From: Bacteroidota bacterium
Lineage (GTDB): Bacteria; Bacteroidota; Bacteroidia; Bacteroidales; UBA4417
NCBI GenBank assembly: GCA_013376995.1
Contig: JACAAZ010000003.1
Span: forward strand, 62,001 to 126,000
Length of the DNA: 64,000 nt
Direction of reading: 5' to 3'
Positions 45,051 to 60,752 of the stretch are shown in pieces (position 1 is the first letter of the stretch; each line of letters starts with the position of its first letter). A model generated the notes under the pieces. The model was not told the origin of the DNA, made no database searches, and saw nothing but the letters and a program-made list of their open reading frames with translations. A program made the translations under genes and the position numbers.

Positions 45051-46463
45051 ATGAATACCTTAGAGATACTGGCATCAGGAGATGATACCATCTGTGCCCT
45101 GTCAACTTCTCCAGGGACAGGTGCTATCGCTGTTATCAGGCTTTCAGGAAAGAAAGCTTTGGAAATAATGGGTGGTCTGTTTGTTCCTGCAGGTAAAAAG
45201 GGAGAGCCCGCCAGTGCTGAATCCCATACCGTTCACCTGGGATTATTCATGCAGGGAAATGAACTGATCGATGAAGTTTTGATGGCTGTATTCCGCAATC
45301 CTCAATCCTATACTGGAGAAGATGTAGTGGAGATCTCCTGTCATGGTTCCCTGTTCATCCAGCAACGCATACTCGAAGCGCTGATCAATGCCGGTGCCAG
45401 GATGGCAAAACCGGGTGAATTCACCTTGAGGGCTTTCATGAACGGTAAATTTGATCTATCACAGGCTGAAGCAGTTGCGGACCTTATTTCAAGCAATTCA
45501 AGAGCCGCTCATGACCTGGCTCTCAACCAGATGCGTGGAGGATTTTCAGGAAAAATCAAGCTGATGCGACAACAGATGCTTGACCTGGCATCCTTGCTAG
45601 AACTCGAATTGGATTTCAGTGAGGAAGATGTTGAATTTGCAGACAGGACCCAACTTACAAATCTCCTTTCTGAATTGAGGCTGGAACTCGGGAAACTGGC
45701 AGAATCTTTCAGCCTTGGGAATGTTATCAAGGAAGGGATACCTGTGGCCATCATCGGCAAGCCCAATGTTGGAAAATCAACACTGCTCAATGCTTTGCTG
45801 AACGAAGAACGAGCAATAGTAAGCGATATCCCCGGAACTACCCGTGATACCATTGAAGATACCCTGACAATCAAGGGGCTCAAATTCAGGTTCATTGATA
45901 CTGCAGGCTTACGCAGCCATAGTACTGATGTTATTGAAAACCTGGGAATCGGGAGAACCTATGAAAAGATAAGAGAGGCAACAGTTATATTATATGTTTT
46001 TGATATCAGTACAATTACGGCAGAGGAAATTGATGAGCTAAAGGAAACCTTCAGGGAGCATATCGTCAATCCGGATAAGCAATTCATCCTGGTGGGCAAT
46101 AAGACCGACCTGATGATGCAGACTCCAGGCCATGTGTCAGCCCATTTTGACCTGGAAACCATCTTTATTTCTGCCAAGCGCAAGGAGAATATCAACATGA
46201 TCATCGACAGCCTGCTACGTACAGTAAATTCAGAGAACCTGAATGACCAGGCTATTGTAAGCAATGCAAGGCATTATGATTCAATCAAAAAGACCCTGGT
46301 AGCCCTTGAAAGCGCCCAGGATGGATTCATCAACAACATTGCGACGGACCTGATAGCTATCGATATCCGTTCAGCCCTTCATCACCTGGGACAGATCACG
46401 GGGGAAGTATCAACAGAGGAATTGCTGGGGAACATATTTGGGAAGTTTTGTATCGGGAAGTAA
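45051..46463 (+). CDS. mnmE: tRNA modification GTPase MnmE
   Basis: 470 residues. An N-terminal tetrahydrofolate-binding domain (DTICALSTSPGTGAIAVIRLSG), a helical domain, an inserted GTPase with G1 GKPNVGKST at about 237-245, G3 DTAG and G4 NKTD, and the C-terminal FCIGK with its cysteine. With MnmG it makes the 5-carboxymethylaminomethyl group on U34 of some tRNAs. The gene has its own promoter. No mnmG is visible in the window. Confidence 0.97.
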   Translation: MNTLEILASGDDTICALSTSPGTGAIAVIRLSGKKALEIMGGLFVPAGKKGEPASAESHTVHLGLFMQGNELIDEVLMAVFRNPQSYTGEDVVEISCHGSLFIQQRILEALINAGARMAKPGEFTLRAFMNGKFDLSQAEAVADLISSNSRAAHDLALNQMRGGFSGKIKLMRQQMLDLASLLELELDFSEEDVEFADRTQLTNLLSELRLELGKLAESFSLGNVIKEGIPVAIIGKPNVGKSTLLNALLNEERAIVSDIPGTTRDTIEDTLTIKGLKFRFIDTAGLRSHSTDVIENLGIGRTYEKIREATVILYVFDISTITAEEIDELKETFREHIVNPDKQFILVGNKTDLMMQTPGHVSAHFDLETIFISAKRKENINMIIDSLLRTVNSENLNDQAIVSNARHYDSIKKTLVALESAQDGFINNIATDLIAIDIRSALHHLGQITGEVSTEELLGNIFGKFCIGK

Positions 46464-46543
46464 TCACCAGGATTGACACTTACTGAAATCGGGTTAAAAG
46501 CAGTCTTTCTCTGGTTCTTTAAAAAACAGAACAATCCGAAGCC

Positions 46544-46629
46544 TATCGGATTTCAAACCGATGCTTACAAAATAAAATCTGTTGCTTATCGGATTCCAAA
46601 GCGATGCTTACAAAAATAAATCCGATGCG
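46544..46629. repeat. Imperfect 43-bp tandem duplication
   Basis: Units at 46544-46586 and 46587-46629 both begin TATCGGATT, then CAAA, CGATGCTTACAAAA and end in AAATC plus a few bases. They differ at a handful of positions. Both lie in the non-coding DNA after mnmE. Confidence 0.7.
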
Positions 46630-46689
46630 CGTCAGTTCGTAAAGGGTTGAAATCGCGAAAAAGATAAGTCTCTTGAAGTTGTGCAGGTA

Positions 46690-46836
46690 TCATGCCACCC
46701 TTTCTTCGTACAAATACTTCTGAAACTCCACAAAAAAGCCCTTCACCTTTCCTACTCCACCTAACCTATCTGTGGCATCGGAAACAGCCTGGTATTTGAG
46801 TTCCAGTAAGGCAGGGAGTTTCCTGGTCAAGTTCTT
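46690..46836 (-). pseudogene. Relic of the 3' end of a second hsdR gene
   Basis: About 147 bases match the last 49 codons of the hsdR gene at 48881-49029, with about nine substitutions and one 2-base deletion. On the minus strand it reads LPALLELKYQAVSDATDR, GGVGKVKGFFVEFQKYL and YEERVA followed by TGA, so the frame holds from the gap to the stop, and the deletion upstream of LPALL puts the rest out of frame. The homology stops exactly at the stop codon on one side and within the gene on the other. No promoter or start is present. It is a fossil, not an expressed gene. Confidence 0.85.
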
Positions 46837-47019
46837 GATTAAAGATGCTTGAATTTTTACTTACGCACTTAAACCATGAGTGATTTCAGACACATTAGCT
46901 TAATGCCAAGGTGACAATCAAATGATATCAAACGTTTTACTATTATTTCCAAATAACAATTCAAGGTTAATACCAATGAATATCACAACATGTTTAAAGT
47001 TTGAGTTTGCCTTAAAATG

Positions 47020-47235
47020 TCAGATTAGGGCCAGAAAAGTAACCAGGTTCACTTCTGAATTTGAAATGCCTAATTTTTGTCTCAACCTATACCGGGCATG
47101 CTCTAAAGCATTCAATTGCTGACCTGTCAGTTCTGATATTGCTTTTGAGGTCATATTCATTTTCAGGAAGGCACAAAGCCGCAGTTCATTAGCTGTTAAA
47201 GCTGGGAAGTTGAACTTGAATTAGATAATTCCTAT
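47020..47235 (-). pseudogene. Remnant of a LuxR-type helix-turn-helix regulator C-terminus
   Basis: On the minus strand, 71 codons without a start read FPALTANELRLCAFLK, MNMTSKAISELTG, LNALEHARYRLRQKLGIS and end in VTFLALI with TGA at 47020-47022. This is the pattern of the C-terminal domain of large Bacteroidota sensor regulators with a LuxR HTH. The frame is closed by TAA just upstream. It is probably the 3' tail of a once larger regulator gene, the rest having been lost or shifted out of frame. The neighbouring frame up to about 47413 (CQNWLEEAISAIRHYNPK and DEDLLNLINDKVF) is also open but has no start and I do not know it. Confidence 0.65.
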
Positions 47236-47499
47236 GCCAGATTAGTTTCCAGATTGAATTGCACTTCGTTCTGAACACTTTATCATTTATTAGATTAAGG
47301 AGGTCTTCATCTGCAAGGAGGACCTCCTTGATTTTTTCGCTTTTTGGATTATAATGTCTAATTGCAGATATAGCTTCTTCTAGCCAATTTTGGCATATTG
47401 TCTTACCTTTTAATTATCAGTTTTTTAACTTAGCGTTATTCAGTCTCGCAGCATAACTTAATTTTTGCCTATATCTGTTTCATCAACCAAAAATTAACT

Positions 47500-48753
47500 T
47501 CAATCCTTTAGACACCGGACTGACACTCCATTATTTTTGTGATAACCCATTTGACCTGAGGAACCATCAAAATAAGTTACCCATCTATCCCATGCATAAA
47601 AAGGCTCTTTTTCTGTAGAACTCCACCAAATTGCATTTGCACCCATTAAGCTACAAGCTCCCAAGCACCAATGGTATCCTCCAGGAAGAGCGGTAAAACC
47701 ACTTTGATTTGTTGCTTCACTGTTTGGCAACTGCCAATAAGCAGAATTAATATCTTTCATTTTACCACCAGCGACTAATGATCCTCCTAAATATTCAATT
47801 AATGAGTCCCATTCTATTTCTGATGGAATGTGCCAACCTGACGGACAAAGCCTATTAGTATCAACTACTGTATACCAATTATACAGTCCACCATAAATAG
47901 CTTTATATGAGCTGTCATTATCATACCATGAATAAGCCCCATTGGTTGTTGTAGCCCACATAGTGGTATCAAGTATCCTTGGAATTTCAACACCATTAAG
48001 ATAATGAGTGGTTTTAAGATTTTCTGCCATCCAAATTTGACTCCCAATTGAAACTACAGAATAATTATTTCCATCAAAATCTTTGCATGGCATGAATTCA
48101 AAATTTACATTCTGAGAACTACTTGGGCTTAGTGTAGTTACAGTACAGTAATCCCCTGAATAAGACCTAAATAGAATTATATCACCTTCATTATAAGGAA
48201 TCTGAATAGCACTTTTTGTACTTTTCAGAATCACGCTCTCTTCAGGTGTGTCATCTGTACTTTTTGCACTGATAGTTGGCCGCCCAGAATGCTTCTCCAC
48301 TGAAAGGATCTTAGCGGAGTAAAAGAAATTTGATGATCTAACTTCTGCCATATAAATGCCTGATTTAAGGTTAGCAACTTCTATATGTCTCGACCCTTTA
48401 TTAAGAAATTGATCATGTCTTAAAATTTCTCTTCCATACTCATCACAAAATCTAATAGAGATATTGTCTGAAGTTGGATTATAAAACTCTATTGTTATTT
48501 TATCTAAACATGGGTTAGGATATAGGCTTAATTTATCAGAATTAATGGGCACTGAGTTAATTCCATGTGTTCCAACCAAATGCAAAGTGTCATCTCCATG
48601 CAAAAGTGCGGTCAATCCCTGAGTCAAGTTTTCTGCATGGATACTATCAATTTGGCTGCTTGATCCGGAAGAGGTAAAACTAATTTTATAATCCTGAGCG
48701 AACAAGACGTTTGCAATTAGCATTGAAAACATTGTAATGGTAATAGTTCTCAT
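47500..48753 (-). CDS. Surface protein with T9SS-type domain and FISUMP domain
   Basis: 417 residues. Signal peptide at 1-19 (ending NVLFA, cut before QD). At residues 76-155 lies a domain with YPNPCLDKITIEFYNP and SGIYMAEVRSS, the pattern of a type IX sorting-type domain, but it is internal. The C-terminal 190 residues are a FISUMP domain (Fibrobacter succinogenes major paralogous domain), seen in KDFDGNNYSVVSIGSQIWMAENLKTT and LCPSGWHIPSEIEWDSLI, with paired cysteines (VVDTNRLCPSGWHIP, CLGACSLMGANAIWWSSTE). Secretion at the cell surface is likely. It stands between the hsdR relic and the intact hsdR, in the same direction as the restriction genes. Confidence 0.85.
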   Translation of the reverse strand: MRTITITMFSMLIANVLFAQDYKISFTSSGSSSQIDSIHAENLTQGLTALLHGDDTLHLVGTHGINSVPINSDKLSLYPNPCLDKITIEFYNPTSDNISIRFCDEYGREILRHDQFLNKGSRHIEVANLKSGIYMAEVRSSNFFYSAKILSVEKHSGRPTISAKSTDDTPEESVILKSTKSAIQIPYNEGDIILFRSYSGDYCTVTTLSPSSSQNVNFEFMPCKDFDGNNYSVVSIGSQIWMAENLKTTHYLNGVEIPRILDTTMWATTTNGAYSWYDNDSSYKAIYGGLYNWYTVVDTNRLCPSGWHIPSEIEWDSLIEYLGGSLVAGGKMKDINSAYWQLPNSEATNQSGFTALPGGYHWCLGACSLMGANAIWWSSTEKEPFYAWDRWVTYFDGSSGQMGYHKNNGVSVRCLKD

Positions 48754-48880
48754 GTTCTTTCGATTTATAGGTAAGTATTTTTAGAATTATAAATAAATTT
48801 TAAGATAAATCTTGGTAGTGTTGTCCCAAATAGCCTACCAATAATACTAAAACTTAATGCTTACAACTTAAATATTGATG

Positions 48881-51268
48881 TCACGCCACCCTCTCCTCAT
48901 ACAAATACTTCTGAAACTCCACAAACAATCCCTTCACCTTCCCTACTCCACCTAACCTATCCGTGGCATCGGAAACAGCCTGGTATTTGAGTTCCAGTAA
49001 GGCCGGGAGTTTTTCCTGGTCAAGTTCTTCGACTCCGGACTCAATATATTTTGCCAGGACAAATTCAACGAATTCCTTTTGATTGTGGTCGAGTAAGGCG
49101 AAGATATTATCCTGGGCTGTGGCTACTCTTTCTTCACGGGTGATGGGATTTGTGGCAAAAGCAATATAATCCAACACGTCAAATAGATCACTCTTTTCGG
49201 CTGATATTAAGGCTTGTAAGGTTATGAGTTGATCTTTCCCAAAGCCTGCTGTTGCTAATTTATCGAGCAATGATTTCCGGGTCATTGGGATGGACCATAG
49301 TGCTCTTAATTCTTCTTCTGTGGTAAAGAATCCGGGTAAGGTACCAAACAATGAATCCAGGAACTCCTGGAGGGAAAGGATCTTGCCATCGGCACTCCAG
49401 AAGGATGTTGATGTCATATGCTGGATCTCCCGCTCCTTTCCATCTGCAAGCTTAATCTTGGTCTTCTTTATGCAGACACAAGGCCGTTTACCGCATTTTG
49501 GGCATGGCTCCGGACCAGGTTTCTCACAGATGCATGGAAGCATTCCGCAGACCAGACAAGGCTTTGGAGGCTCTTTTACGCATTCACAAGGATATTTATT
49601 GCACTTTGGACAGGGTTCTGGCTCAGAAGGTGGACCATCCCACTCCTCATCCAGGAAATGATGATAGGCGTCTACATAATCATAAATGGTAAAGAAGTCC
49701 TTGCCATCGAAAAGTCGAGTACCCCTGCCTATGATCTGCTTGAACTCTATCATGGTATTGATGGGGCGAAGCAGGACAATATTCCTGATATTGAGTGCAT
49801 CAACTCCTGTGGAAAGCTTCTGAGAGGTAGTTAGGATAGTTGGGATGGATTTCTCATTATCCTGGAACTCCCGCAGGTACTGTTCTCCCAATAATCCATC
49901 ATTGGCTGTTACCCTGACGCAGTAATTGGGATCAGTACTTTTCTTGTATTGGTTGATCAGCTCCCTGACAGCAGCAGCATGATCCTGGGTAGCACAAAAG
50001 ACAATGGCTTTTTCTTTCTGGTTGGCATCATCCATGTAAACTCGCACTCTTTTTGCCTCCCTCTCCCGGATCTCGATGATCCGGTTAAAGTCTGACTCCA
50101 CATATTTTTTACCATATTCTATTTCACCTTCAACCACCTGGTCATCCGGTGTGTAGATGTAATTATCTATTGTAGTTTGAATCCGCTTTACCCTGAAGGG
50201 TGTCAGGAATCCATCGTTGATGCCTTCTTTTAATGAATAGGTATAGACCGGCTCTCCAAAATAATGGTAAGTATCCATATTGAACTGCCTCTTGGGAGTG
50301 GCTGTTAATCCAAGCTGGACAGCCGGCGAAAAATACTCCATGATGGAACGCCAGTTGCTTTCATCGTTTGCTCCTCCCCTATGACATTCATCAATGATGA
50401 TAAAATCAAAGTAATCCTTTGGGTATTCGCCAAAGTAGGGTTCTGAATTCCCAAAAGCATCGGTCCCTGACATGAAGGTCTGGAAAATGGTAAAGAAAAT
50501 GCTGCCATTCGTGGGGACTCTCCCATTTTTCCTGACTTCGTCCGGCTTTATGCGAACCAGGGCATCTTCCGGGAAGGCTGAAAAAGCATTGAATGCCTGG
50601 TCTGCAAGTATGTTCCTGTCGGCCAGGAATAAGATCCGTGGCCTGCGGGACGCATATCGTGTAAGGTTCCAGCGGGTCTGGAATAGTTTCCAGGCAATCT
50701 GGAAGGCTATGTAGGTTTTGCCTGTTCCCGTTGCCATGGTAAGCAGGATGCGCGGCTTCTGATCCGCAATGGCTTCCATGGTTTTGTTAACGGCAATCTC
50801 CTGGTAAAAGCGAGGCTTTTTGGTTCCACCGACGTTTTCGATGGGGACAGCATTGAATGCATCTCTCCAGCTGTTCTGGGTTGAAAACACAAGGTTCCAG
50901 AGTTCTTCGGGGGATGGAAAGGCTGTTACAAGCATTTCCTTGCCCGACTCCATAGCTACCTGGTAAATCTCTTTCCCATTGCAGGAATAGGCATAGGCAA
51001 TCTGCAATTTCCCTGCATAGTTCTTTGCCTGGGCAACTCCTTCCCCAACTGCAACTTCAATGCTTTTAGCTTCGACAACAGCCAGTTTCCGGCCTTTATA
51101 CTCAAGGATGTAATCAGCTATTAGTTGTTTGCCTCGGCTGCCACCAACCTGGATCTTACCGGAAGTTATAGGAAATTCCCTGTGAATCTTACTTGTTTCC
51201 ACGACTCCCCATCCGCTGGCTTTCAGGGCCGGGTCAATAAGTTCAGCTCGGGTTTCGGCTTCGTTCAT
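48881..51268 (-). CDS. hsdR: Type I restriction enzyme R subunit HsdR with cysteine repeats
   Basis: 795 residues. The nuclease domain is at the front: D52 and E66-x-K68 (VVEAKS). The motor follows with Walker A TMATGTGKT (177-185), DECH at 293-296 (IIDECHRG) and helicase motifs LTATPK (321-326) and QIIGRGTRL (511-519). A remarkable insert at 552-599 has three copies of P-C-x-x-C-(N/G)-x-x-P-C-x-C with an 18-residue period, separating motor from the C-terminal helical domain that binds HsdM/HsdS. HsdR translocates DNA and cuts at a distance when the site is unmethylated. It is the last gene of the hsd operon, six bases after the RhuM/Fic gene. The length is normal for the EcoR124/EcoEI-like class. 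Confidence 0.95.
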   Translation of the reverse strand: MNEAETRAELIDPALKASGWGVVETSKIHREFPITSGKIQVGGSRGKQLIADYILEYKGRKLAVVEAKSIEVAVGEGVAQAKNYAGKLQIAYAYSCNGKEIYQVAMESGKEMLVTAFPSPEELWNLVFSTQNSWRDAFNAVPIENVGGTKKPRFYQEIAVNKTMEAIADQKPRILLTMATGTGKTYIAFQIAWKLFQTRWNLTRYASRRPRILFLADRNILADQAFNAFSAFPEDALVRIKPDEVRKNGRVPTNGSIFFTIFQTFMSGTDAFGNSEPYFGEYPKDYFDFIIIDECHRGGANDESNWRSIMEYFSPAVQLGLTATPKRQFNMDTYHYFGEPVYTYSLKEGINDGFLTPFRVKRIQTTIDNYIYTPDDQVVEGEIEYGKKYVESDFNRIIEIREREAKRVRVYMDDANQKEKAIVFCATQDHAAAVRELINQYKKSTDPNYCVRVTANDGLLGEQYLREFQDNEKSIPTILTTSQKLSTGVDALNIRNIVLLRPINTMIEFKQIIGRGTRLFDGKDFFTIYDYVDAYHHFLDEEWDGPPSEPEPCPKCNKYPCECVKEPPKPCLVCGMLPCICEKPGPEPCPKCGKRPCVCIKKTKIKLADGKEREIQHMTSTSFWSADGKILSLQEFLDSLFGTLPGFFTTEEELRALWSIPMTRKSLLDKLATAGFGKDQLITLQALISAEKSDLFDVLDYIAFATNPITREERVATAQDNIFALLDHNQKEFVEFVLAKYIESGVEELDQEKLPALLELKYQAVSDATDRLGGVGKVKGLFVEFQKYLYEERVA

Positions 51269-51274
51269 AGATAG

Positions 51275-52249
51275 CTAATTATTACTATTTATAAGGTTGA
51301 CCACCAGTCTTACCATCGTTTCCTTCTCTTCGGCTCTGCTTTCAGCAATCATAATGGTTATGGCAACCAATGCATTATCATTTAATATTTTACTCCCATC
51401 CTTTTGATAAAGAGCATTGTTCATATCCAGGAAATAGACAAACAATCCAGCTGCGATGCGTTTATTTCCATCAACAAATGAATGATTCTTTACGATAAAA
51501 TAGAGCAGATTTGCAGCTTTCTCTTCAATACCAGGATACACATCCTTTCCATCGGCAGACTGATAAATTGCATACAAGGAACTCCGGAAGGAATCATCCT
51601 TTTCCCGTCCAAACAGCTTTCCCGCTTTTTCAATAACTTTCCATTCATCAATAAGAAGTTTGGCAGCACCATATGTTAATGGTTTTACTTCAATAACCCT
51701 GTCATCAGAACCAGGCAGAATATTCCGGTCATACTTATCGAGGATCTCGAGCGCATAGGAGTACTGTTGCAGAATCTTCAGTATGCCCTTGGCCTCAGAT
51801 GTTGTGATATCACTTCTTTCAGCTGAAAGAGCAGCTATCTGGATTGTTTTAAACAGCTCCCTGTACTTGGTTTCAATATTTCCTGGATCGGACTTACGCA
51901 GTGCTTGTGTGAGCAGGTGATTTTTCAGGACATTGGTTGCCCATATTCTAAAATTGGTACCTCGAAGAGACTTAACACGATAACCAACTGAAATGATAAC
52001 ATCGAGATTATAATTCTCAACCTGATAGATTTTTCCATCGTTTGCAGTTGTCGCAAATTTTGCGACAACTGAATCTTTGATTAATTCACCTTCTTTAAAT
52101 ATATTACCGATATGCTTCCCAATCGTCTTGATATCCCTATCAAACAATGATGCAAGTTGTTCACGATTAAGCCATACTGTATCCTTATCAAGCCTGACAC
52201 TAAATTCTTCAAGATTACCAGGGGACTTATATATTTCGATTTCACTCAT
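51275..52249 (-). CDS. RhuM-type N-terminal domain fused to Fic/Doc domain
   Basis: 324 residues. The first 110 residues match the virulence-associated RhuM type (VRLDKDTVWLNREQLASLFDRD, GKIYQVENYNLDVIISVGYRVKS, FRIWATNVL), a predicted nucleic-acid-binding module. A linker leads to a Fic/Doc core with H256, F258, D260, N262, K263 and R264 in HSFVDGNKRIA. Lys in place of the second Gly of the canonical HPFxxGNGR motif is the Doc-like form, which uses ATP to phosphorylate rather than AMPylate targets; the activity here is unknown. Cotranscription with hsdR (six-base gap) and location inside an hsd operon suggest a role linked to restriction, perhaps abortive infection. No separate antitoxin gene is seen. 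Confidence 0.88.
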   Translation of the reverse strand: MSEIEIYKSPGNLEEFSVRLDKDTVWLNREQLASLFDRDIKTIGKHIGNIFKEGELIKDSVVAKFATTANDGKIYQVENYNLDVIISVGYRVKSLRGTNFRIWATNVLKNHLLTQALRKSDPGNIETKYRELFKTIQIAALSAERSDITTSEAKGILKILQQYSYALEILDKYDRNILPGSDDRVIEVKPLTYGAAKLLIDEWKVIEKAGKLFGREKDDSFRSSLYAIYQSADGKDVYPGIEEKAANLLYFIVKNHSFVDGNKRIAAGLFVYFLDMNNALYQKDGSKILNDNALVAITIMIAESRAEEKETMVRLVVNLINSNN

Positions 52250-52303
52250 ACATTCCGGTCATTTGAATAGTTGCAAAATTTGCAAAAGTTGAGTCTTTAT
52301 ATC

Positions 52304-52325
52304 TATTTTAGGATTAATGGATTAT
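52304..52325 (+). repeat. GATTTTAGGATT-type repeat, copy 1 (diverged)
   Basis: TATTTTAGGATTAATGGATT. Part of a group of three direct and one inverted copies around the GxxExxY gene. Confidence 0.45.
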
Positions 52326-52389
52326 ATTTATTTGTAGTCTTTAAACTTACTATGATCGCATCGTATTTCAAACCTTGACTGAGTAGTAT

Positions 52390-52785
52390 CTATTTGATTT
52401 TAGGATTGACAGGATTATACTTTGGATTATATACTTTCTTAAATTGCAAACTAACCGAACCAAAATTGATAAGCAGACCTATTGGAAAATCATAGGCTAC
52501 AACATAATTCTTTGCCTGGGCCAGATGGACATCTTCAAGGTTGATCAGCGCTTTTAATTCTACTATTACCTGATTTTCAATTACAAAGTCTGCTCTCCGT
52601 GTGCCAACATCAATTCCTTCATAGTAAATTGTTTGCTCTATTTCTCTTCCAAAACTCAGCCCGGCTCTACTTAATTCAATTGCCAAACATCTCTGATATA
52701 TAACCTCCTGAAAACCATTGCCTAGTGTATTGTGAACCTTCATTGCACAACCGTTAATTTTATAGGTAATGTCGTCAAGAGTCAT
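52390..52785 (-). CDS. GxxExxY protein (PD-(D/E)XK-like)
   Basis: 131 residues. The defining motif is G-F-Q-E-V-I-Y near residue 24 (NGFQEVIYQR), and RADFVIENQVIVELKAL around 85-100 is the nuclease-like core with D and E-x-K. The C-terminus NPVNPKIK is encoded by the nearby TCCTGT(A/C)AATCCTAAAATC repeat, as I recall for other members of this group. The activity is unproven. The gene lies between hsdS (191 bases upstream) and the RhuM/Fic gene (140 bases downstream), on the same strand. It looks like a mobile insertion in the hsd operon. Confidence 0.85.
   Translation of the reverse strand: MTLDDITYKINGCAMKVHNTLGNGFQEVIYQRCLAIELSRAGLSFGREIEQTIYYEGIDVGTRRADFVIENQVIVELKALINLEDVHLAQAKNYVVAYDFPIGLLINFGSVSLQFKKVYNPKYNPVNPKIK
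52396..52417 (+). repeat. GATTTTAGGATT-type repeat, copy 2
   Basis: GATTTTAGGATTGACAGGAT, which in the minus frame forms the last codons of the GxxExxY gene. Confidence 0.6.
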
Positions 52786-52810
52786 AAATTGTCAGAATCA
52801 GGATTTGATT

Positions 52811-52832
52811 GATTTTAGGATTTACAGGATTA
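52811..52832 (+). repeat. GATTTTAGGATT-type repeat, copy 3
   Basis: GATTTTAGGATTTACAGGAT, 25 bases upstream of the GxxExxY start on the minus strand. It differs from copy 2 at one position (GACAGG against TACAGG). Confidence 0.6.
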
Positions 52833-52959
52833 GTTTCTGTAATTTTTATTCTTCCTCTCATTAATTAAATGAAGATATAAAATCTTGACTTCTGATCTTA
52901 ACTTTAACTTCTATTCATCATCGCAATCCAGCAATCTTCTAAATCAAATATCCTGAACA

Positions 52960-52985
52960 TCCTTCAATCCTGTAAATCATGATTC
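52960..52985 (-). repeat. Inverted copy of the same repeat beside hsdS
   Basis: TTCAATCCTGTAAATC at about 52962-52977, the reverse orientation of copies 1-3, touching the hsdS stop codon. Confidence 0.5.
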
Positions 52986-54185
52986 AGACAATTGTCCGCT
53001 GAAAGCCTTTTGCAATATGCTCTTCTTGAGCTCTTCCAAATCTACTATTTTTTGTTGGTAGATGGATTCGAGTTTTTTTGTTTTAACGGAAAAGGCTTCA
53101 ATTTGACTCACAATTTTTCCTTGCTTGAAAATTGAGGGAAGTCTAATGGGAAATCTTCGGACATCCTTAACATTTAAATTTGGCACTCCAGAGCTGCTAA
53201 TACTTCTTATAGCAATGGATTTGACGATAGGAGAATTTAGATAATGTTTTAAATAATAGCTATTTAGTATATCAGGTTTGGGTTTAATCAATGTCAAACT
53301 AACATAGACACTAAATTCAAATTCGCATTCGACAACACCTGCTTCTCCAAATTTAGAACCAACACGTGAATATAAAATATCCCCTTTTGCTGGTTTGTTT
53401 TTCTTAGTAAGTTCTTGATGAAATCTTTGCGAAATATATTTATAGTTTTCTAAAACCACCTCTCCATTTCTTACATTTTGAGCAGATAAAAAGGGAATAC
53501 CTTCGTTTTCATCAACATATTTAGGCGTTGCTGCAACACCACAAGTTATCAAATCACACACATCAAATAATGTTGTCTCATCCATTTCCTCACCAGTGTT
53601 TTCAAACATCGATTTCAAATAACTCTCAAAAAGTTCTTTAGCGTTTTGCAGGTTGCGTTCTGCATTGGCTTTTGCTTTGGCAATGGCTGAAAAGGCTTGA
53701 TCAAAGGTGGTGACGATGCGTTGTTGCTCAATAATTGGAGGAATTGCAATTACAATCTCTTTTAGCCTACTTATTGGGATGAAGTCAATAGTTGTTTTTC
53801 CACTTAATCTTGATAATTGCTCCTTTAATGTTGAACAAAAATGGTACAAATAAGTGGCTAAAAGCACACCTTCCTTTTTGACAATCAATCCGTTAAATTG
53901 CTGATTAGTTGTCAAAGGGATTTCAGTTAATGCGCACTCTCCAATAGAAGCAGTACAACAAATAAGGACTGAGTTTTTAGGCAGAACTCTTAGCCTCTGC
54001 AATGCGGAATTGGTTACATGCTGCCTTGTAAACCTTATTATTCTTCCTTGTTCTCTAATGTCATCTATTGTGAACCACGGAAAGGTACCATTATCCCAAA
54101 ATTCATTATTGGATCTTAATGGAGTAGAGCCATTTACAATTTCACAAACCTCCCCCAACTTTTTTATTTCCCAACCTTTCCTCAT
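52977..54185 (-). CDS. hsdS: Type I restriction specificity subunit HsdS
   Basis: 402 residues. Two target recognition domains, each followed by a conserved helical region: the first (about 1-150) begins GWEIKKLGEVCEIVNGSTP and ends with PPIIEQQRIVTTFDQAF; the second (about 195-360) begins with DETTLFDVCDLITCG and ends RLPSIFKQGKIVSQIEAF, with LEELKKSILQKAFSGQL at the end. It selects the bipartite DNA sequence methylated and cut by the complex. The sequence recognised cannot be predicted. It starts four bases inside the end of hsdM, so translation is coupled. Confidence 0.95.
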   Translation of the reverse strand: MRKGWEIKKLGEVCEIVNGSTPLRSNNEFWDNGTFPWFTIDDIREQGRIIRFTRQHVTNSALQRLRVLPKNSVLICCTASIGECALTEIPLTTNQQFNGLIVKKEGVLLATYLYHFCSTLKEQLSRLSGKTTIDFIPISRLKEIVIAIPPIIEQQRIVTTFDQAFSAIAKAKANAERNLQNAKELFESYLKSMFENTGEEMDETTLFDVCDLITCGVAATPKYVDENEGIPFLSAQNVRNGEVVLENYKYISQRFHQELTKKNKPAKGDILYSRVGSKFGEAGVVECEFEFSVYVSLTLIKPKPDILNSYYLKHYLNSPIVKSIAIRSISSSGVPNLNVKDVRRFPIRLPSIFKQGKIVSQIEAFSVKTKKLESIYQQKIVDLEELKKSILQKAFSGQLSES

Positions 54186-55639
54186 AACAACTCCAGAATT
54201 GAATTTAGAATTCCGGCGCTTTCTGCATCCAGAGCTTTCATTTCTTCCAGGATCGCTTCCGGAGATCGTAATGCAGTTTCTTCTTTCTTATTCGGATTTT
54301 TGGCTGAAAGATCATAAGTAGAAGTATCTACATCTGCAATATTCAACAACCAAGAGTTATCAGAAGAAGCTTTCGTTTTTTGTAATTCCACAAACTCTGC
54401 GAGATCGGCTTCATTCAATGGAGCAGTCTTTCCCAGGTTACGTTCCAAGTTTAGCTGGTAGAACCAGATGTCGCGGGTTGGTGCCCCTTTTTCAAAGAAA
54501 AGCACCACTGTTTTAACTCCTGCACCCGTAAACGTGCCACCGGGCAGGTCAAGCACTGTATGCAGGTTACAGCTTTCCAGGAGCAGCTTACGCAGGCTTA
54601 CAGAGGCATTATCCGTATTGCTCAGGAAAGTGTTTTTGATAACTACGCCAGCCTTTCCACCGGCTTTCAGGATCTTTATAAAATGCTGGAGAAAGAGGAA
54701 AGCGGTTTCACCGGTCTTGATGGGAAAGTTTTGCTGCACTTCTGCCCTTTCCTTTCCGCCAAAGGGCGGGTTTGCAACGACAATATCATAGCGGTCGCGT
54801 TCCTGTATATTGGCCAGGTTCTCAGCCAGGGTATTGGTATGCACGATGTTGGGGGCTTCAATACCATGAAGGATCATGTTCATGGTCCCGATGATGTAGG
54901 CCAGGGATTTCTTTTCCTTGCCATAGAAGGTTTTGGATTGCAATACCTGGTCCTGGGAGGTTGAACGCTGCTTGTTATGCTCCTTCAGGTATTCAAATGC
55001 TTCGCAGAGGAAGCCTGCAGAGCCCACTGCGCCATCATAAATGGTATTGCCTATCTCTGGTGCCACCACCTTCACAATGGTCCGGATGAGCGGCCTGGGT
55101 GTGTAATATTCGCCACCATTGCGACCTGCATTGCCCATATTCTGAATCTTGGATTCATACAAATGGCTCATTTCATGCTTTTCGGAATGGGTACGGAAGC
55201 GGAGTTCATCAATGCGGTTGATCACTTCCCGCAGGTTGTAGCCACTCTGTATCTTATTTTTCAGTTCGCTGAATATCTCACCGATCTTGTATTCAATAGT
55301 ATTGGGGGAAGTGGCATTGGCCTTGAACTTCTTTAGGTAAGGAAACAGTTTAAGATCAACGAAGTCCTTGAGATCGTCACCTGTAAGGGCTTTATGGTGG
55401 TCAAGTTTGCCATCGCCATTCTTTGGAGCAGCCCAGAGTTCCCATTTAAACTCCTCTCCTATTAGTTCAGCATAGTCTTCTCCACGAAGTTCTGCCTTGG
55501 TCCGGCGGTCTTTTTCAAGGTCATCCAGGTATTTGAGGAAAAGTATCCAGGAGGTTTGTTCCACATAGTCCAGTTCGCTGGAGCAGCCAGCATCCTTGTG
55601 GAGTATATCATCGATGTTTTTGAAGGTTTGTTCGAACAT
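54182..55639 (-). CDS. hsdM: Type I restriction DNA methyltransferase subunit HsdM
   Basis: 485 residues. The N-terminal helical domain is followed by the SAM-binding fold with motif I DGAVGSAGF (202-210) and the adenine methyltransferase motif NPPF at 290-293 (VVANPPFGGKE). MGNAGRNGGEYYTPRPLI near 170-185 is typical of this subunit. It N6-methylates adenine in both half-sites read by HsdS. It is the first gene of the operon. A possible phylum-type promoter is about 50 bases upstream. Confidence 0.96.
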   Translation of the reverse strand: MFEQTFKNIDDILHKDAGCSSELDYVEQTSWILFLKYLDDLEKDRRTKAELRGEDYAELIGEEFKWELWAAPKNGDGKLDHHKALTGDDLKDFVDLKLFPYLKKFKANATSPNTIEYKIGEIFSELKNKIQSGYNLREVINRIDELRFRTHSEKHEMSHLYESKIQNMGNAGRNGGEYYTPRPLIRTIVKVVAPEIGNTIYDGAVGSAGFLCEAFEYLKEHNKQRSTSQDQVLQSKTFYGKEKKSLAYIIGTMNMILHGIEAPNIVHTNTLAENLANIQERDRYDIVVANPPFGGKERAEVQQNFPIKTGETAFLFLQHFIKILKAGGKAGVVIKNTFLSNTDNASVSLRKLLLESCNLHTVLDLPGGTFTGAGVKTVVLFFEKGAPTRDIWFYQLNLERNLGKTAPLNEADLAEFVELQKTKASSDNSWLLNIADVDTSTYDLSAKNPNKKEETALRSPEAILEEMKALDAESAGILNSILELL

Positions 55640-56095
55640 TAGAAAGGTATCTGCTAAAGTGATAGGATGAATAATACAATAAGGTTCAAAGCTACAAAGG
55701 AAATCAATAACATCAATAGGTGTACGATACCTCTTAACTTTTATATAAGAAATAAAAAATCGATTAAAAAAGTTATCTCTGTTTCAATCCTCTATTAATA
55801 TACAAATTTCATAGAACATTTTCATTTCGGCAAACAATATGATAACATATTAGGATTCAGTAAATTTTCCCTATTAATCGTCCTCAAGGTGATTTGTAAT
55901 ACTACTTAATAACGTTTTTTTAAAGATTTTTTTTAATTGAGGTGTAACCTTATGCTATTAAAGCAATTAAATAGATGAAAACCCAACTGAAAAGTCTTGT
56001 ATAGTTATTCTGATCAAAATAATTTAGCCTAATTTGGCTCCATTGTCTTGACATAGTTGTACAAAACTTGTTTTATTAACCTTATTCTATGTGCC
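55640..56095. other. AT-rich intergenic region upstream of hsdM
   Basis: About 450 bases with no gene that I accept. It divides the minus-strand hsd operon from the plus-strand membrane gene and should hold promoters for both. The strong AT bias is in keeping with imported DNA. Confidence 0.6.
55687..55716 (-). promoter_or_regulatory. Possible promoter of the hsd operon
   Basis: On the minus strand TTG (plus 55714-55716), 19-base spacer, TAGCTTTG (plus 55687-55694), near TTTG-N19-21-TAnnTTTG, 48 bases before the hsdM ATG. Confidence 0.4.
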
Positions 56096-56512
56096 ATGAG
56101 ACAAAAAACAAGCACAGTAGTCAAGAATTTTATTAATTTCTTGAAATGCATCTATGACTTAGAGATTAGTTTGAAGAAATGGTCACGCAACATAGGTCCA
56201 TCGGATCAAAATGACCATAAAGATGATTCTAAATCATTAGATAATCTCGGCACTGAAATTAGCAAAATGCTTGAGCAAGATCGTGAATATACTTATAAAT
56301 ACTCATTAATTCGTGAGAAATACAGAATGATCTATTTTTGGGGAATAATGTTGTTTCTTGCATTTTTGGTCATCTTTCTTGCTGACAAAGACAATGATCT
56401 CCTTTTAACATTAGTGGACAAGTTTTCAAGTATATTCTTAGGAGCACTTGGAGGTTATGGCTATAAATCTTACCTTGATAATAAAAAAACAGATTCGGAT
56501 AACTTTCCATGA
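56096..56512 (+). CDS. Small membrane protein of unknown function
   Basis: I start at the ATG at 56096 (MRQKTSTVV); the track of frame extends to 56057 but the residues before it look untranslated. 138 residues: a basic amphipathic first half with EISKMLEQDREYTYKYSLIREKY, one clear membrane helix (YFWGIMLFLAFLVIFLA), then a second weaker hydrophobic stretch (SSIFLGALGGYGYKS) and an acidic tail. I do not recognise a family. It is divergent from hsdM and could be a defence or phage-related membrane effector only by position; no evidence supports that beyond location. Confidence 0.55.
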   Translation: MRQKTSTVVKNFINFLKCIYDLEISLKKWSRNIGPSDQNDHKDDSKSLDNLGTEISKMLEQDREYTYKYSLIREKYRMIYFWGIMLFLAFLVIFLADKDNDLLLTLVDKFSSIFLGALGGYGYKSYLDNKKTDSDNFP

Positions 56513-56759
56513 AGATGGGAGTTTGATTAAAAAGCTTGGTACTTTGTACCTCATTTGTACCTCCAATTCATAAATAACTGTATTTCAGTACCATTTACTT
56601 TCTGTATCGGGAAGTAAACCCGTCCTACCACAAAAAGCAGACTTACGTTTATAGCTTCAACCTGGCAAGGGTTGATTACATTATTGAGTGTTCTTCTAAG
56701 TGTTAATGGAGTGTCGAAGGATTTAGTGAGATTTTCATAATCAGCCTTCAGACAAAAAG

Positions 56760-57194
56760 TTACATCCTCTCCATATACCAACTCAACTGCTTTTCGAGCC
56801 TGCGGAAGCTGAAAAGGGTGGTTATGATTTTCTGCAATCGGACAAAGGCAGTTTCGCTTTTCACAACGTAATCTGAGGCTTTGTGATGCATACAATTTAT
56901 AGCTACTTCTATTTTGTCCTGGGAGGATAACATAACCACTGGAATATCCGGGTTGAATTCCTTTATCCTGTCGAGGGTCTCAATTCCATTTATCGCTTTT
57001 TTATTAACGCCATCCAGGTAGTAATCCAGGATTACAACATCCGGGTTATGTGATAGGTCGGCAACGCAAAGTTCACCTGTAGCGAAAGTTTCAATGCTGA
57101 AATCAGCATGCTGCAGAAATTCAATTTCCAACAATTTCAGGTACAATGCATCGTCATCAACGAGGAAAAGTTTAATCTTTTCGTTATCTTTCAT
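56760..57194 (-). CDS. Single-domain response regulator
   Basis: 144 residues consisting of a receiver domain only. The acidic pair is in LVDDD (13-15), the phosphoacceptor is D57 (VVILDYYLD), S90 (VVMLSS) and K112 (DYVVKSE) complete the site. With no output domain it must pass phosphate on or act by binding a partner. It lies four bases from the hybrid kinase gene (57191-57194 overlap of start and stop) and so is translationally coupled to it; the kinase has an Hpt domain that could donate phosphate. Confidence 0.88.
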   Translation of the reverse strand: MKDNEKIKLFLVDDDALYLKLLEIEFLQHADFSIETFATGELCVADLSHNPDVVILDYYLDGVNKKAINGIETLDRIKEFNPDIPVVMLSSQDKIEVAINCMHHKASDYVVKSETAFVRLQKIITTLFSFRRLEKQLSWYMERM

Positions 57195-59524
57195 TTGTTG
57201 GAGTTTTTAATCACATTAAATTCTATTTCCAGTTCCCTGCATGCTTGCGTACAAACATTTTCCAGCTGCTGAACAAGATCAGGAATACCATCCGTTTGCT
57301 GCTGGGTACTTGCATATTCCTGCACCTTCTTGGCCATATTTTCAAAATCTATATTTATTCCTACGATTGAAAAGGAAGGAATCATCTTATGTACTGCAGC
57401 GTACAATGAGCCCCAGTCTTTATTCAGTAGACTATGCTTCATCGTATTGATAAGTGGCGGTGTTTGCTCCAGGTAAAGCGATATCATCTCCATCATCAAA
57501 ATTGGATTTGATTTGGTACGACGAATTAAATATTGAAGGTCAATGCATCGTTCCGGTTTTACCGCAATGTTTTCCTCCAGCTTTTCCCTAACAGGAGCGG
57601 ATTTCTTTACAAATTCTACAATTTTACTGTACAATAATTTTTCATCAATGGGTTTGGCTATATAATCATTCATACCCACTGCCCTGCATTTCTCCAGGTC
57701 AACCGTTGTAACATCAGCAGTAAGCGCGATTATTGGAATCGCTGATTTCAATGTATTCCGGATATAATCGGTTGCTTCGAAACCATTCATTTCAGGCATC
57801 TGCAAATCCATTAAAATGATATCGTAGGAATTGGTATTCAATTTATCAATCGCAATTTTCCCGTTCACAGCGATATCGCATTCAAAACCGAAATCATCCA
57901 ATACGGTTCTCATGAGTAATTGGTTGAGTGCTATGTCTTCTGCAACCAGGACTTTGATATCCTTAATTTCGGTATCAAGCTCAACGAATTCTGATTCCTC
58001 TTCGGCATCGGCTTTGGTTTTCAGAAAACTCAGGATAAAGCTGAAAGTAGAGCCCTCATTCACTTTGGAAGTTACGCTGATGCTCCCACCCTGGGGCTCT
58101 ACCAACTGTTTTACAATTGCCAGGCCCAAGCCAGTGCCTCCATATAGCCTTGATGTGCCCGAGGATGCCTGTTGAAAATTCTCAAAAATCTTTTCAATCT
58201 TATTTTCTGCGATCCCAATCCCGGTATCTCTCACCTGGAATTCAATCATCGCCATTTCATCATTTTCTTCAATCAAACGGACACTTACAGTAATCTTACC
58301 CTTGGTTGTAAACTTAACTGCATTGCTAACCAGGTTTAAAATAATCTGGTGCAGCCGGACAGGGTCCCCAACCAAAACATCCGGAATCCGTTCATCATAT
58401 TCTTTAACAAGGTCAAGGTTCTTTTCCCTGATCTTGGCCTCAAAAAGATGCAGCATGGCAGAGATGGACAATGACATTTTAAATGGAGTTTGTTCAAATA
58501 TCATTTTCCCGGCATCCACCTTTGCAAGGTCGAGGATATCATTGATCAGGACGATCAATGCATCGCCACTTAATTTTATCGCCTGCAGGTATTCTTTTTG
58601 TTTTGTTGTGAGGTCAGTTTTCAGAACCACTTTTGTGAAGCCTATAATAGCATTCATTGGGGTACGGATCTCATGGCTCATATTTGAAAGGAATTGTTGC
58701 TTGGCCTTTACTGCATTTTCAGCAATTCGTGTGGCATTTTCTGCCTTAGTTTTTGCTTCTTCAGCTATACCGGCAGCAAGTTCAGCGAAAACAATAGCTT
58801 CTGTCAATTCCGTTTCAACTCTCTTCTGTTCAGTGATATCCCTCGCTACAAGCACTGCTCCCAGCACATGGCCCCTGTCATTTTTATAAACCGAGCCGTT
58901 GAACAAGACATCGGTAAGTTTGCCATCCATGATTGTGAGAGGGAAATCGGCAACAAAGCCTTTCTTGAAAACCTGTTGCCAGGCTTCTTTTGCATTTTCG
59001 GGTTTTGTAAAATAGTTGAAGAATTCCGTACCTATTAATTCGACGCGTGACACCCCGGTAACCTTAACCGTAGCCTCGTTCATATCCGTAATCTTGCCCT
59101 GGGGACTTATTGTGAACAAGGGGTCGCGACTGGCTTCTATTAAGCTCAATGAATAGTTTGACAGCTGTTTTTGTGCAGTAACATCCCGTGCAACGATTAC
59201 TACACCAAGCACTTTCCCATCATCATCCCTATAAACCGAACCGTTGAAGAGGACATCGGTAAGTTTTCCATCATTATGGCGGAGCGTTAGCGGTGAATCT
59301 GCTACAGAGCCTTTTGCAAAGACTTCCTGGTAAACTTCCCTTGCTTTTTGGGGCTCAGTGAAGTAATCGAAGAAGTCGGTTCCCCTCAGCTTTTCCCGGG
59401 TAATACCAGTAATACTAGCCAGGGCTTCATTCATATCTGTGATCTTTCCATCAATATTGATAGTTATGAGAGGATCAAGGCTGGCCTCAATAAGGCTCCT
59501 GGCGTAGTGAGATTCCTGGTTCAT
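57191..59524 (-). CDS. Cytoplasmic hybrid histidine kinase: PAS-PAS-HisKA-HATPase-REC-Hpt
   Basis: I start at the ATG at 59522-59524 (MNQESHYARSLIEASLDPL); the frame reaches 59605 but those residues lack a role. 777 residues. Two PAS domains follow directly and are near copies of each other: both run SLIEAS-DPL, GKITDMNEA, DGKLTDVLFNGSVY and VLG-V-VARD. Then comes a coiled linker, the HisKA box (SHEIRTPMNA), HATPase_c (NLVSNAVKFTT, GTGLGLAIVKQL), a receiver (MDLQMPEMNGFEA) and an Hpt-like C-terminal domain (AAVHKMIPSFSIVG). There is no membrane helix, so it senses an internal signal. It is followed by a receiver protein that overlaps it by four bases, a complete phosphorelay on one operon. 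Confidence 0.9.
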   Translation of the reverse strand: MNQESHYARSLIEASLDPLITINIDGKITDMNEALASITGITREKLRGTDFFDYFTEPQKAREVYQEVFAKGSVADSPLTLRHNDGKLTDVLFNGSVYRDDDGKVLGVVIVARDVTAQKQLSNYSLSLIEASRDPLFTISPQGKITDMNEATVKVTGVSRVELIGTEFFNYFTKPENAKEAWQQVFKKGFVADFPLTIMDGKLTDVLFNGSVYKNDRGHVLGAVLVARDITEQKRVETELTEAIVFAELAAGIAEEAKTKAENATRIAENAVKAKQQFLSNMSHEIRTPMNAIIGFTKVVLKTDLTTKQKEYLQAIKLSGDALIVLINDILDLAKVDAGKMIFEQTPFKMSLSISAMLHLFEAKIREKNLDLVKEYDERIPDVLVGDPVRLHQIILNLVSNAVKFTTKGKITVSVRLIEENDEMAMIEFQVRDTGIGIAENKIEKIFENFQQASSGTSRLYGGTGLGLAIVKQLVEPQGGSISVTSKVNEGSTFSFILSFLKTKADAEEESEFVELDTEIKDIKVLVAEDIALNQLLMRTVLDDFGFECDIAVNGKIAIDKLNTNSYDIILMDLQMPEMNGFEATDYIRNTLKSAIPIIALTADVTTVDLEKCRAVGMNDYIAKPIDEKLLYSKIVEFVKKSAPVREKLEENIAVKPERCIDLQYLIRRTKSNPILMMEMISLYLEQTPPLINTMKHSLLNKDWGSLYAAVHKMIPSFSIVGINIDFENMAKKVQEYASTQQQTDGIPDLVQQLENVCTQACRELEIEFNVIKNSNK

Positions 59525-59668
59525 TTTTGAATTATCACGATGAATACTGATGTTTGGACCGATTCTGTTTCGATTTGTTATACTGATTATTTCGAAGGGT
59601 TGCATACTGAGCCTGATTCCGTGCAGATAAATGATTTGATCCTGATGCTCAACCAGGAAACATTTTTA

Positions 59669-60253
59669 CTAAACCTCAGCATAATTCGCATTACCCAACT
59701 CTTCAATAGGGCTCCTTTTCCTATCCTTCAACTGTTTGAACTGTGTAGGGGAAAGCCCGGTCACCTTCTTAAACTGGTTTGAAAGATGGGCCACACTGCT
59801 ATAATGAAGCCTGTAGGAAATTTCCGTCAGGTTCAGTTCTTCATACAACAGGAGTTCCTTGGCTCTCTCTATTTTATGGATGATGATAAACTGCTGTATA
59901 GTTATACCCTTAACTTCTGAAAAAAGGTTAGACAGGTATGTATAATCATAATTCAGTTTTTCACTCAAATAGTCTGAATAGTTTGTTTTGGGCATTTCTT
60001 CCGTAAAATGGATCATTTCAAAAATCACATTCTTAATTTTTTCAATCAGAACTGCTTTGCGGTTGTCCATGAGTTCAAGCCCGGAATTTATCAACGCTTG
60101 ATTTAATTGTTCCCGCTGTTCTTCGGAAATACTTTCCATGATCTCAACCTCGCCCAAGTCAACCAGGATAAAGTGTAAACCCAGTTGAGTCAGGACAGTT
60201 TTTACTTCCTGCTTGCACCGGTTACTCACCATGTATTTGATATAAAGCTTCAT
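59669..60253 (-). CDS. AraC-family transcriptional regulator
   Basis: 194 residues. The C-terminal half has the double helix-turn-helix of AraC/XylS (TIQQFIIIHKIERAKELLLYEELNLTEISYRLHYSSVAHLSNQFKKVTGLSPTQFKQ, broken over residues 115-170 as two HTH). The N-terminal 90 residues (MKLYIKYMVSNRCKQEVKTVL) look like an HMA/ACT-type sensor and lack the cupin of classical AraC proteins. It probably regulates one of the neighbours. It is 145 bases upstream of the hybrid kinase and on the same strand, so a direct link to that signalling set is plausible. Target genes cannot be stated. Confidence 0.88.
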   Translation of the reverse strand: MKLYIKYMVSNRCKQEVKTVLTQLGLHFILVDLGEVEIMESISEEQREQLNQALINSGLELMDNRKAVLIEKIKNVIFEMIHFTEEMPKTNYSDYLSEKLNYDYTYLSNLFSEVKGITIQQFIIIHKIERAKELLLYEELNLTEISYRLHYSSVAHLSNQFKKVTGLSPTQFKQLKDRKRSPIEELGNANYAEV

Positions 60254-60370
60254 ATCTGTTTCAATATGTTAGGACAAATTTCTCCTATCAGTTCCCAAGG
60301 TTGCAGCAATATTTTCGCTATTGCTCTGTTTACTAATATTTTGCTATTCAACGTTGTTTTCGACAATAAC

Positions 60371-60556
60371 TTACAGAGCTGCCAGGATCTTCAGCATCTC
60401 TTCCTTCGTTTTGCCTAGTTTGATTTGCAATTTCCTGATAACCTCCTCTTTTTTACATTCTTCAAACAACAGATCTTTATCGGTGAGGGCAGCAAATTTC
60501 TGCTTGAGCTTGTCTTTCTTTTCGCTCCAATTCCAGTTGGTATCGGTTACTATCAT
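60371..60556 (-). CDS. CsbD-like stress protein
   Basis: 61 residues. NWNWSEKKDKLKQKFAALTDKDLLF followed by a second helix (EEVIRKLQIKLGKTKEEMLKIL) is the CsbD pattern, a small charged helical protein raised in general stress and osmotic stress in many bacteria. The biochemical role is not known. The gene lies 117 bases from the AraC gene, same strand, and 196 bases from mgtA. I see no promoter I can name. Confidence 0.78.
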   Translation of the reverse strand: MIVTDTNWNWSEKKDKLKQKFAALTDKDLLFEECKKEEVIRKLQIKLGKTKEEMLKILAAL

Positions 60557-60752
60557 TTTCTATTAATTTCATACTCCTGTAATACAAGAGATGTGTGAAA
60601 ACATTTTCACCACGCAAAAGTGGGCAGAATAAATTCGGGAAGTGTTACATATTTTCAAGTAAGACTTACAGAATTCACACATTCTGAATTGGTAAGCCGG
60701 AACAGGAAATATGCATTATATCAATACATTGAAGGTGAAATACATGAATATT

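What the first reader, a model, noticed from the sequence alone, without database searches (positions are those of the whole stretch)
46690..49029. Fossil of the hsdR 3' end on the far side of the FISUMP gene
46690-46836 matches the last ~49 codons of the intact hsdR (48881-49029) at all but about nine positions and a 2-base gap, and ends exactly at the same stop codon. The two copies are in direct orientation and flank the FISUMP gene (47500-48753) and a LuxR relic. Simple models: a second type I locus once stood here and was lost, leaving its 3' end; or the FISUMP block entered by recombination at the hsdR end and duplicated the target. Direct repeats of this kind can also recombine to delete what lies between them.
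Basis: seen in the sequence. Interest (0 to 1): 0.6.

Follow-up and report, generated by a model that had tools for sequence, protein, structure and literature searches.

The report
Leftover restriction-gene end in an island
A 147-base leftover of the end of a restriction-enzyme gene is real; it sits inside a 10-kilobase DNA island inserted at the end of a tRNA-modification gene, and it looks like the old gene end left behind when related foreign DNA recombined in.

Summary
Window 46690-46836 (- strand) copies the last 49 codons and stop of the intact hsdR (48881-51268) with nine substitutions and a 2-base gap. All nine substitutions are at codon position 3 (dS 0.34, dN 0.010), so the two ends diverged while both encoded working protein. 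A target duplication that then decayed does not fit.

The larger context was missed. The last 18 bp of mnmE (46446-46463) recur at 56600-56617, the only two pattern hits in the 5.05-Mb genome. The fossil, a second gene stub, the FISUMP gene and the type I RM operon thus lie in a 10.15-kb island at the mnmE 3' end, the SGI1 target. No integrase was found in it. 10 of 117 sampled genomes of the order, own included, show such a pair. In 7 of the 13 other paired genomes examined, an integrase is the first or second ORF after mnmE.

One of 46 other hsdR loci has a similar stub (L046).

Best reading: incoming DNA with a diverged hsdR end plus cargo displaced the resident end. A lost second RM locus remains a serious rival.

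The parts
45051..46463 (+). mnmE (trmE/thdF), intact; its 3' end is the integration target
   Evidence: MnmE_helical, TrmE_N; full-length orthologues 69-75% identical in 11 of 15 other genus members
46446..46463 (+). left attachment copy (attL core): last 18 bp of mnmE, TTTTGTATCGGGAAGTAA
46464..46689 (.). left end of the island between mnmE and the hsdR stub; holds two 43-bp repeat units (46533-46618)
46690..46836 (-). hsdR 3' stub: last 49 codons and stop of a diverged hsdR allele, with a 2-base frameshift
47020..47208 (-).
47500..48753 (-). FISUMP (Fib_succ_major) protein gene, 417 aa
   Evidence: PF09603 E 1.5e-41, PF18962 E 6.4e-11
48881..51268 (-). intact hsdR, 795 aa; the repeated end is 48881-49029
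   Evidence: ResIII, EcoEI_R_C, REase_I
51275..52249 (-). RhuM/Fic-domain protein, 324 aa (PADLOC candidate PDC-S23)
52390..52785 (-). PD-(D/E)XK_3 protein, 131 aa (GxxExxY type by my recall)
52977..54185 (-). hsdS, 402 aa
54182..55639 (-). hsdM, 485 aa
56057..56512 (+). ORF of 151 aa (TTG start), no family match
56543..56563 (+). TTGTACC twice, 11 bp apart, just inside the right end; the same word stands twice with the same spacing beside mnmE in G010
   Evidence: possible integrase arm sites (inference)
56570..56599 (+). island-side flank of the right copy, resembling right ends of some mnmE islands in other families (best 20/30 with G115 and G028)
   Evidence: 2 of 5000 shuffles score as high
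56600..56617 (+). right attachment copy (attR core), TTCTGTATCGGGAAGTAA

Best explanation
The block from 46464 to 56599 is a 10.15-kb genomic island that entered at the 3' end of mnmE by a tyrosine-recombinase-type event. It now has no recognisable integrase (a CIME-like remnant, or an island moved in trans). Its main cargo is a type I restriction-modification operon whose hsdR 3' end faces mnmE. The 147-bp fossil is most likely the displaced end of the resident hsdR. DNA from a related donor, carrying its own diverged but working hsdR end followed by the FISUMP gene and a truncated second gene, recombined with hsdR on one side and joined illegitimately on the other, pushing the old end about 2 kb downstream. 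Shown: the repeat, the selection signature, the 18-bp direct repeats, the right-end sequence shared with some islands, integrases at the same site in relatives. Inferred: that one event placed the FISUMP block, and its recombination chemistry.
For: Stub: nine of nine substitutions third-position, eight synonymous, dS 0.34, dN 0.010. DNA beyond the two stops unrelated. The stub holds the string ELKYQAVSDATDRLGGVGKVKG of the intact protein, whole in none of 16 other hsdR ends. Island: the 18-bp core pattern occurs exactly twice in the own genome, same strand, reversed-pattern control 0; expected copies with at most one mismatch 0.014 per genome. The right copy's island-side flank resembles other islands' (2 of 5000 shuffles; it is the only one of 10,862 sampled window 30-mers to reach its score). 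10 of 117 order genomes, own included, have a same-strand pair within 30 kb. In all 13 other paired genomes examined the first copy is the mnmE end, and in 7 of 13 a related integrase is the first or second ORF after it. Within the genus, G013 has the integrase there, and G006/G008 look like an empty/occupied pair. Displacement: an independent hsdR end stub lies 2.7 kb downstream of hsdR, same orientation, ending at the stop, in L046. No hsdM/hsdS remains lie beside the stub. In G067 an RM operon of this hsdR family likewise faces mnmE. Such displacement is proposed for T6SS effector and Rhs genes (PMC5361080, passages) and a displaced gene end is described for icd/e14 (PMC6379469, passages).
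Against: No donor or pre-insertion genome was found, so a single event is not shown. Only 1 of 46 other readable hsdR loci (about 44 distinct) has a clear stub, and its eight differences are not third-position-only (positions 1,3,3,2,3,3,1,1). No integrase was found in the island or between the hsdR ends. The own right flank is not syntenic with any of 11 other right flanks compared, so the empty site of this very island is not seen. Right-end likeness is strong with only some islands (10-20 of 30 matches with shifts of one base allowed), and several of the 17 flanks, G214, G230a, G070 and G218a most, do not clearly exceed their own shuffles. The looser pattern has a chance level: 22 reversed-control hits in 117 genomes, one of them in the own genome.
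Confidence: 0.5

Rival explanations
1. A second, older type I RM locus with a closely related hsdR stood nearest mnmE in the same island or in an earlier tandem island; all but its last 49 codons was deleted when islands turned over at this site.
For: Third-position-only divergence fits a once-functional allele. The site holds tandem units elsewhere: three copies in a row in G218 and in G230. Tandem arrays at this target are documented for SGI1 (PMC2297512, passages). An RM operon facing mnmE also exists in G067.
Against: Needs two RM loci with about 93% identical hsdR ends side by side plus a separate deletion. tblastn of the window's own hsdM and hsdS against 46464-48880 gives nothing better than E 3.2. 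The same geometry in L046 would need the same coincidence again.
Confidence: 0.33
2. A site-specific element with its attachment core inside hsdR inserted, bringing a replacement hsdR end and leaving the native end behind, exactly as e14 does in icd.
For: Geometry as for e14, which leaves a 163-bp pseudo-icd' (PMC6379469, passages). The stub's 5' end has 18 identical bases.
Against: No recombinase gene found in the 2.0 kb between the ends. Between the L046 ends the two largest ORFs are a DUF3800 protein and one without a Pfam hit. 18 identical bases are unremarkable at 93% identity.
Confidence: 0.1
3. Plain segmental duplication of the hsdR end, or a target-site duplication, followed by neutral decay.
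For: Direct orientation and the same stop codon.
Against: Nine of nine differences at codon position 3; probability of at least 8 of 9 synonymous under neutrality 4.9e-5. No shared DNA beyond the stops.
Confidence: 0.03

Closest known systems
SGI1 and other trmE/mnmE-targeting genomic islands of Gammaproteobacteria
   Same: Target is the last 18 bp of mnmE/thdF/trmE, with direct repeats at both ends; tandem arrays possible (PMC2297512, passages; PMC8409611, passages).
   Different: Here in an order that is probably Bacteroidales (inference); no integrase found, and no mobilisation or resistance gene among the seven island proteins scanned. The recombinase at this site in relative G013 is a Phage_int_SAM_5/Phage_integrase protein with Arm-DNA-bind_5; it was not compared with SGI1 Int.
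CIME (cis-mobilizable element: att sites kept, integration and transfer genes lost)
   Same: attL and attR copies without a recognisable integrase or transfer gene (definition in PMC5704250, passages).
   Different: Loss of an integrase from this very island is not shown; it may have moved in trans.
Displacement of gene ends in T6SS effector and Rhs loci by homology-facilitated illegitimate recombination
   Same: Incoming DNA anchored by homology leaves orphan 3' regions downstream (PMC5361080, passages, where the mechanism is itself proposed as putative).
   Different: The gene here is hsdR, and the incoming end encodes nearly the same protein rather than a new toxin or effector tip.
e14/icd displaced gene end in E. 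coli
   Same: A 163-bp displaced 3' end across an inserted element (PMC6379469, passages).
   Different: e14 is a prophage integrating site-specifically; no recombinase is found here.

Membership tests
mnmE 3'-end integrated genomic island | direct copies of the mnmE 3' end at both borders | tested here: met
   46446-46463 and 56600-56617; only two pattern hits in the genome
mnmE 3'-end integrated genomic island | own site-specific integrase next to an end | tested here: not met
   no integrase family among seven island proteins scanned; tblastn with the G013 integrase finds nothing above noise, best E 2.7
mnmE 3'-end integrated genomic island | right-end sequence shared with other islands at the site | tested here: met
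   2 of 5000 shuffles reach the score; likeness strong with G115, G028, G109, G052, weaker with the other 12 flanks
mnmE 3'-end integrated genomic island | empty site in a close relative | tested here: inconclusive
   G006/G008 give such a pair for another island of the genus; none found for the own right flank
mnmE 3'-end integrated genomic island | excision to a circle | not testable with these tools
   needs reads or DNA
CIME | att sites retained, integration and transfer genes absent | tested here: met
   by gene content of the scanned ORFs only
CIME | can be mobilised in cis by an accreted element | not testable with these tools
   no experiment possible
type I RM system | hsdM, hsdS and hsdR all intact and in one cluster | tested here: met
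   open frames of 485, 402 and 795 aa with MTase_I, Specificity_I, REase_I models; two other genes lie between hsdS and hsdR
displaced gene end (homology-facilitated or e14-type) | orphan 3' end ends at the stop and differs from the intact end as a functional allele would | tested here: met
displaced gene end (homology-facilitated or e14-type) | pre-insertion locus in a relative | tested here: inconclusive
   1 of 47 hsdR loci has mnmE on its contig (L139, G067): single hsdR end, no FISUMP hit, but another family and 4.4 kb of other cargo between
decayed target duplication | differences spread over codon positions | tested here: not met
   9 of 9 at position 3

The most novel reading that the evidence does not exclude
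The conserved 3' end of this hsdR family works as a recurrent recombination port: incoming RM fragments anchor in hsdR and bring new downstream cargo (FISUMP here, a DUF3800 gene in Flavobacterium UBA5153), leaving orphan hsdR ends. RM operons would thus swap passenger genes by end displacement, here inside an mnmE-site island of a kind found in about one in twelve sampled genomes of this order.
Probability: 0.2. Interest if true: 0.6.

Novelty: new member of a known kind. Interest (0 to 1): 0.4.

Why it matters
It turns a small oddity into a trace of how a defence island changed: the two hsdR ends give a relative clock, and the mnmE repeats show which DNA moved as a unit. The survey suggests that the mnmE 3' end, known as the SGI1 target in Gammaproteobacteria, is also a frequent island site in this order (10 of 117 genomes sampled, own included). 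My searches for mnmE or trmE islands in Bacteroidetes/Bacteroides (listings with titles and abstract starts; passages of PMC5704250) showed no report of that, but the library lacks most subscription papers and I read no paper whole.

Tried and rejected
Second copy of the mnmE end as chance: rejected (expected 0.014 copies per genome with at most one mismatch under a first-order model of the window). tRNA target: none in the window. Integrase relic in the island: none above noise. Integrase of the same family elsewhere in the own genome: best 36% identity on C14, too distant to assign. FISUMP block copied from elsewhere in the genome: only FISUMP paralogue matches on C1 and C43 in the DNA search. 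hsdM/hsdS remains beside the stub: none. hsdR in viral contigs: none. Jump in GC3 along hsdR: none. Structure prediction was not used.

hsdR survey: 47 loci besides the window; L059 dropped because its C-terminus was not reached, leaving 46. Three have under 500 bases of downstream DNA (L138, L149, L070). Other short hits (L043, L142, L152, L158, L161; L058) are on the other strand, upstream, or do not reach the stop codon, and were treated as chance. The window row took the stub itself as the hsdR end, so it is not a test.

The pair count was made by eye from its complete match list; re-checked the distances of the rows I had picked, not the whole list. Of the 13 other paired genomes nine come and four (G218, G230, G214, G243), whose match list was cut short, so those four are not part of a rate. 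G218, G052 and G243 were each read as two loci. The family scans covered 70 chosen ORFs of these units, not all, and show 25 of 96 and 25 of 240 families. It also called the second stub LuxR; one search did not bear that out.
Full report
OBSERVATION. The repeat is real. 46690-46836 and 48881-49029 align in direct orientation at 93% (149 columns), E = 3.6e-57 against the own genome, with no third match at E <= 0.001. Read as codons on the - strand back from the shared TGA, the first 43 codons show nine differences, every one at codon position 3; eight are synonymous and one is Leu to Phe; then follows the 2-base gap. Nei-Gojobori on these codons gives dS 0.34 and dN 0.010, and at least 8 of 9 synonymous by chance has probability 4.9e-5. 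The two ends therefore diverged while both were translated and selected; that the stub lost its function recently is inference from the near lack of other changes. The DNA beyond the two stops is not homologous. The stub carries the string ELKYQAVSDATDRLGGVGKVKG of this hsdR, found whole in none of 16 other family members (two share the KVK part), so it is a close sister allele.

SETTING. Between the two ends lie a 417-aa FISUMP protein gene and a second 3'-end stub: the last 62 codons of a gene like the 577-aa one on contig C43 (81% identical in protein). So the mnmE-proximal end of this region holds two gene ends without their genes. No remains of hsdM, hsdS or other window genes lie there.

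ISLAND. A search of the own genome with the mnmE end gave an 18-bp hit at window 56600-56617, identical to the last 18 bp of mnmE at 17 of 18 positions. The pattern TTYTGYATHGGNAARTAA occurs exactly twice in the 5.05-Mb genome, both here and on the same strand, with no hit of the reversed control. Expected copies with at most one mismatch: 0.014 per genome. The 10.15 kb between hold the two stubs, the FISUMP gene, hsdR, a RhuM/Fic protein, a PD-(D/E)XK_3 protein, hsdS, hsdM and an ORF of unknown family. In SGI1 the first attachment site is likewise the last 18 bp of thdF, which is mnmE (PMC2297512, passages; PMC8409611, passages).

RELATIVES. Left of mnmE, sucD and a beta-lactamase-family gene stand in 6 of 10 fetched genus loci; in the other four little or no left flank was held, or the genes are not there (names by Pfam). 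Right of it, among 12 right flanks compared, only G006 and G008 share a gene in place, G010 and G013 share a first ORF (37%), and the own flank has only matches of its kinase-type proteins. G013 has an HTH_17 protein and then a tyrosine recombinase (PF13102, PF00589, PF17293) after mnmE. G008 has a second copy of the mnmE end on another contig, followed after 0.7 kb by the DNA that in G006 starts 0.3 kb after mnmE itself (73% nucleotide identity over 2.15 kb): an occupied/empty pair for another island. In an order-wide sample 10 of 117 genomes, own included, have two copies on one strand of one contig within 30 kb (counted by eye, distances re-checked); the reversed control gave 22 hits in the same 117. 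Four more genomes came from the truncated list. In all 13 other genomes the first copy is the mnmE end, and in 7 of 13 a related integrase is the first or second ORF of 80 aa or more after it. In the other six, as in ours, none was found. Among 70 chosen proteins of these units 7 match Phage_integrase, 2 N6_Mtase, 2 RhuM and 2 HipA_C, and some match candidate defence models. Island-side bases left of the second copy are alike in many units: own versus the other 16 flanks scores 13.75 of 30 on average against 11.3 for shuffles, reached by 2 of 5000. G214, G230a, G070 and G218a show no clear likeness.

WHERE THE STUB CAME FROM. Three routes would leave a functional-looking hsdR end: a lost second RM locus, a site-specific element with its core in hsdR, or a recombination event anchored in hsdR. 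Among 46 other hsdR loci with a readable end (about 44 distinct), one, L046 (Flavobacterium sp. UBA5153), has a 48-bp stub of its hsdR end 2.7 kb downstream, same orientation, ending at the same stop, with unrelated genes between, one of them DUF3800. Its eight differences fall at positions 1, 2 and 3, so it is less clean. One of 47 hsdR loci, L139 (G067, another family), has mnmE on the contig: its hsdR faces mnmE as here, across 4.4 kb of other genes, with one hsdR end found, no FISUMP hit and a contig that stops inside the RM operon. Its hsdR frame is cut by a stop near the end. So this RM family sits in this orientation beside mnmE in at least two families, but G067 is too distant to show the pre-insertion state. 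The repeated stub geometry (close allele, direct orientation, downstream, ending at the stop) follows from homology-anchored displacement and needs coincidence in the lost-locus model; that is why I put displacement first, at even odds. Displacement of this kind is proposed for T6SS effectors and Rhs (PMC5361080, passages), and e14 leaves a 163-bp pseudo-icd' (PMC6379469, passages). Without a recombinase between the ends an e14-type route is less likely here.

LIMITS. One genome per species is held, so the pre-insertion junction could not be seen. Whether the island still moves is unknown.

VERDICT. The fossil is genuine and its likely history is ordinary for a defence island at a busy integration site. 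The additions are the mnmE island frame, strong evidence that the fossil was a working gene end, and a second hsdR stub elsewhere.

Noticed in passing
52385-52417 and 52800-52832: A 33-bp direct repeat (85% identical) brackets the PD-(D/E)XK_3 gene (52390-52785) almost exactly, as if that gene were a small insert of its own.
   Followed up: no
46533-46618: Two tandem 43-bp units (81% alike) in the island's left end; one similar 43-bp stretch (81%) exists on contig C41 of the same genome.
   Followed up: no
L046:12109-12156: Independent hsdR 3' stub 2.7 kb downstream of hsdR in Flavobacterium sp. UBA5153, in a locus with an integrase, an HTH_17 protein and a D5_N/DUF5906 protein upstream of hsdM.
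   Followed up: yes
L139 (G067): mnmE 8155-9564, hsdR from 1263: Another RM operon of the same hsdR family facing mnmE, with 4.4 kb of other genes between; its hsdR is broken by a stop near the end.
   Followed up: partly
L101/L102 (G218) and L103 (G230): Three mnmE-end copies in a row: an integrase unit next to mnmE and a second unit in which no relative of that integrase was found, i.e. tandem accretion at mnmE.
   Followed up: partly
L099 (G109), L104 (G131), L127 (G112): Very small units of 1.6-2.2 kb with one or two ORFs and no integrase found between mnmE-end copies.
   Followed up: partly
56760-63275: Right of the island: response regulator, hybrid histidine kinase with PAS domains, AraC-family protein, cation ATPase; a homologue of the AraC-family protein (60%) also stands beside a type I RM locus in L047.
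   Followed up: no
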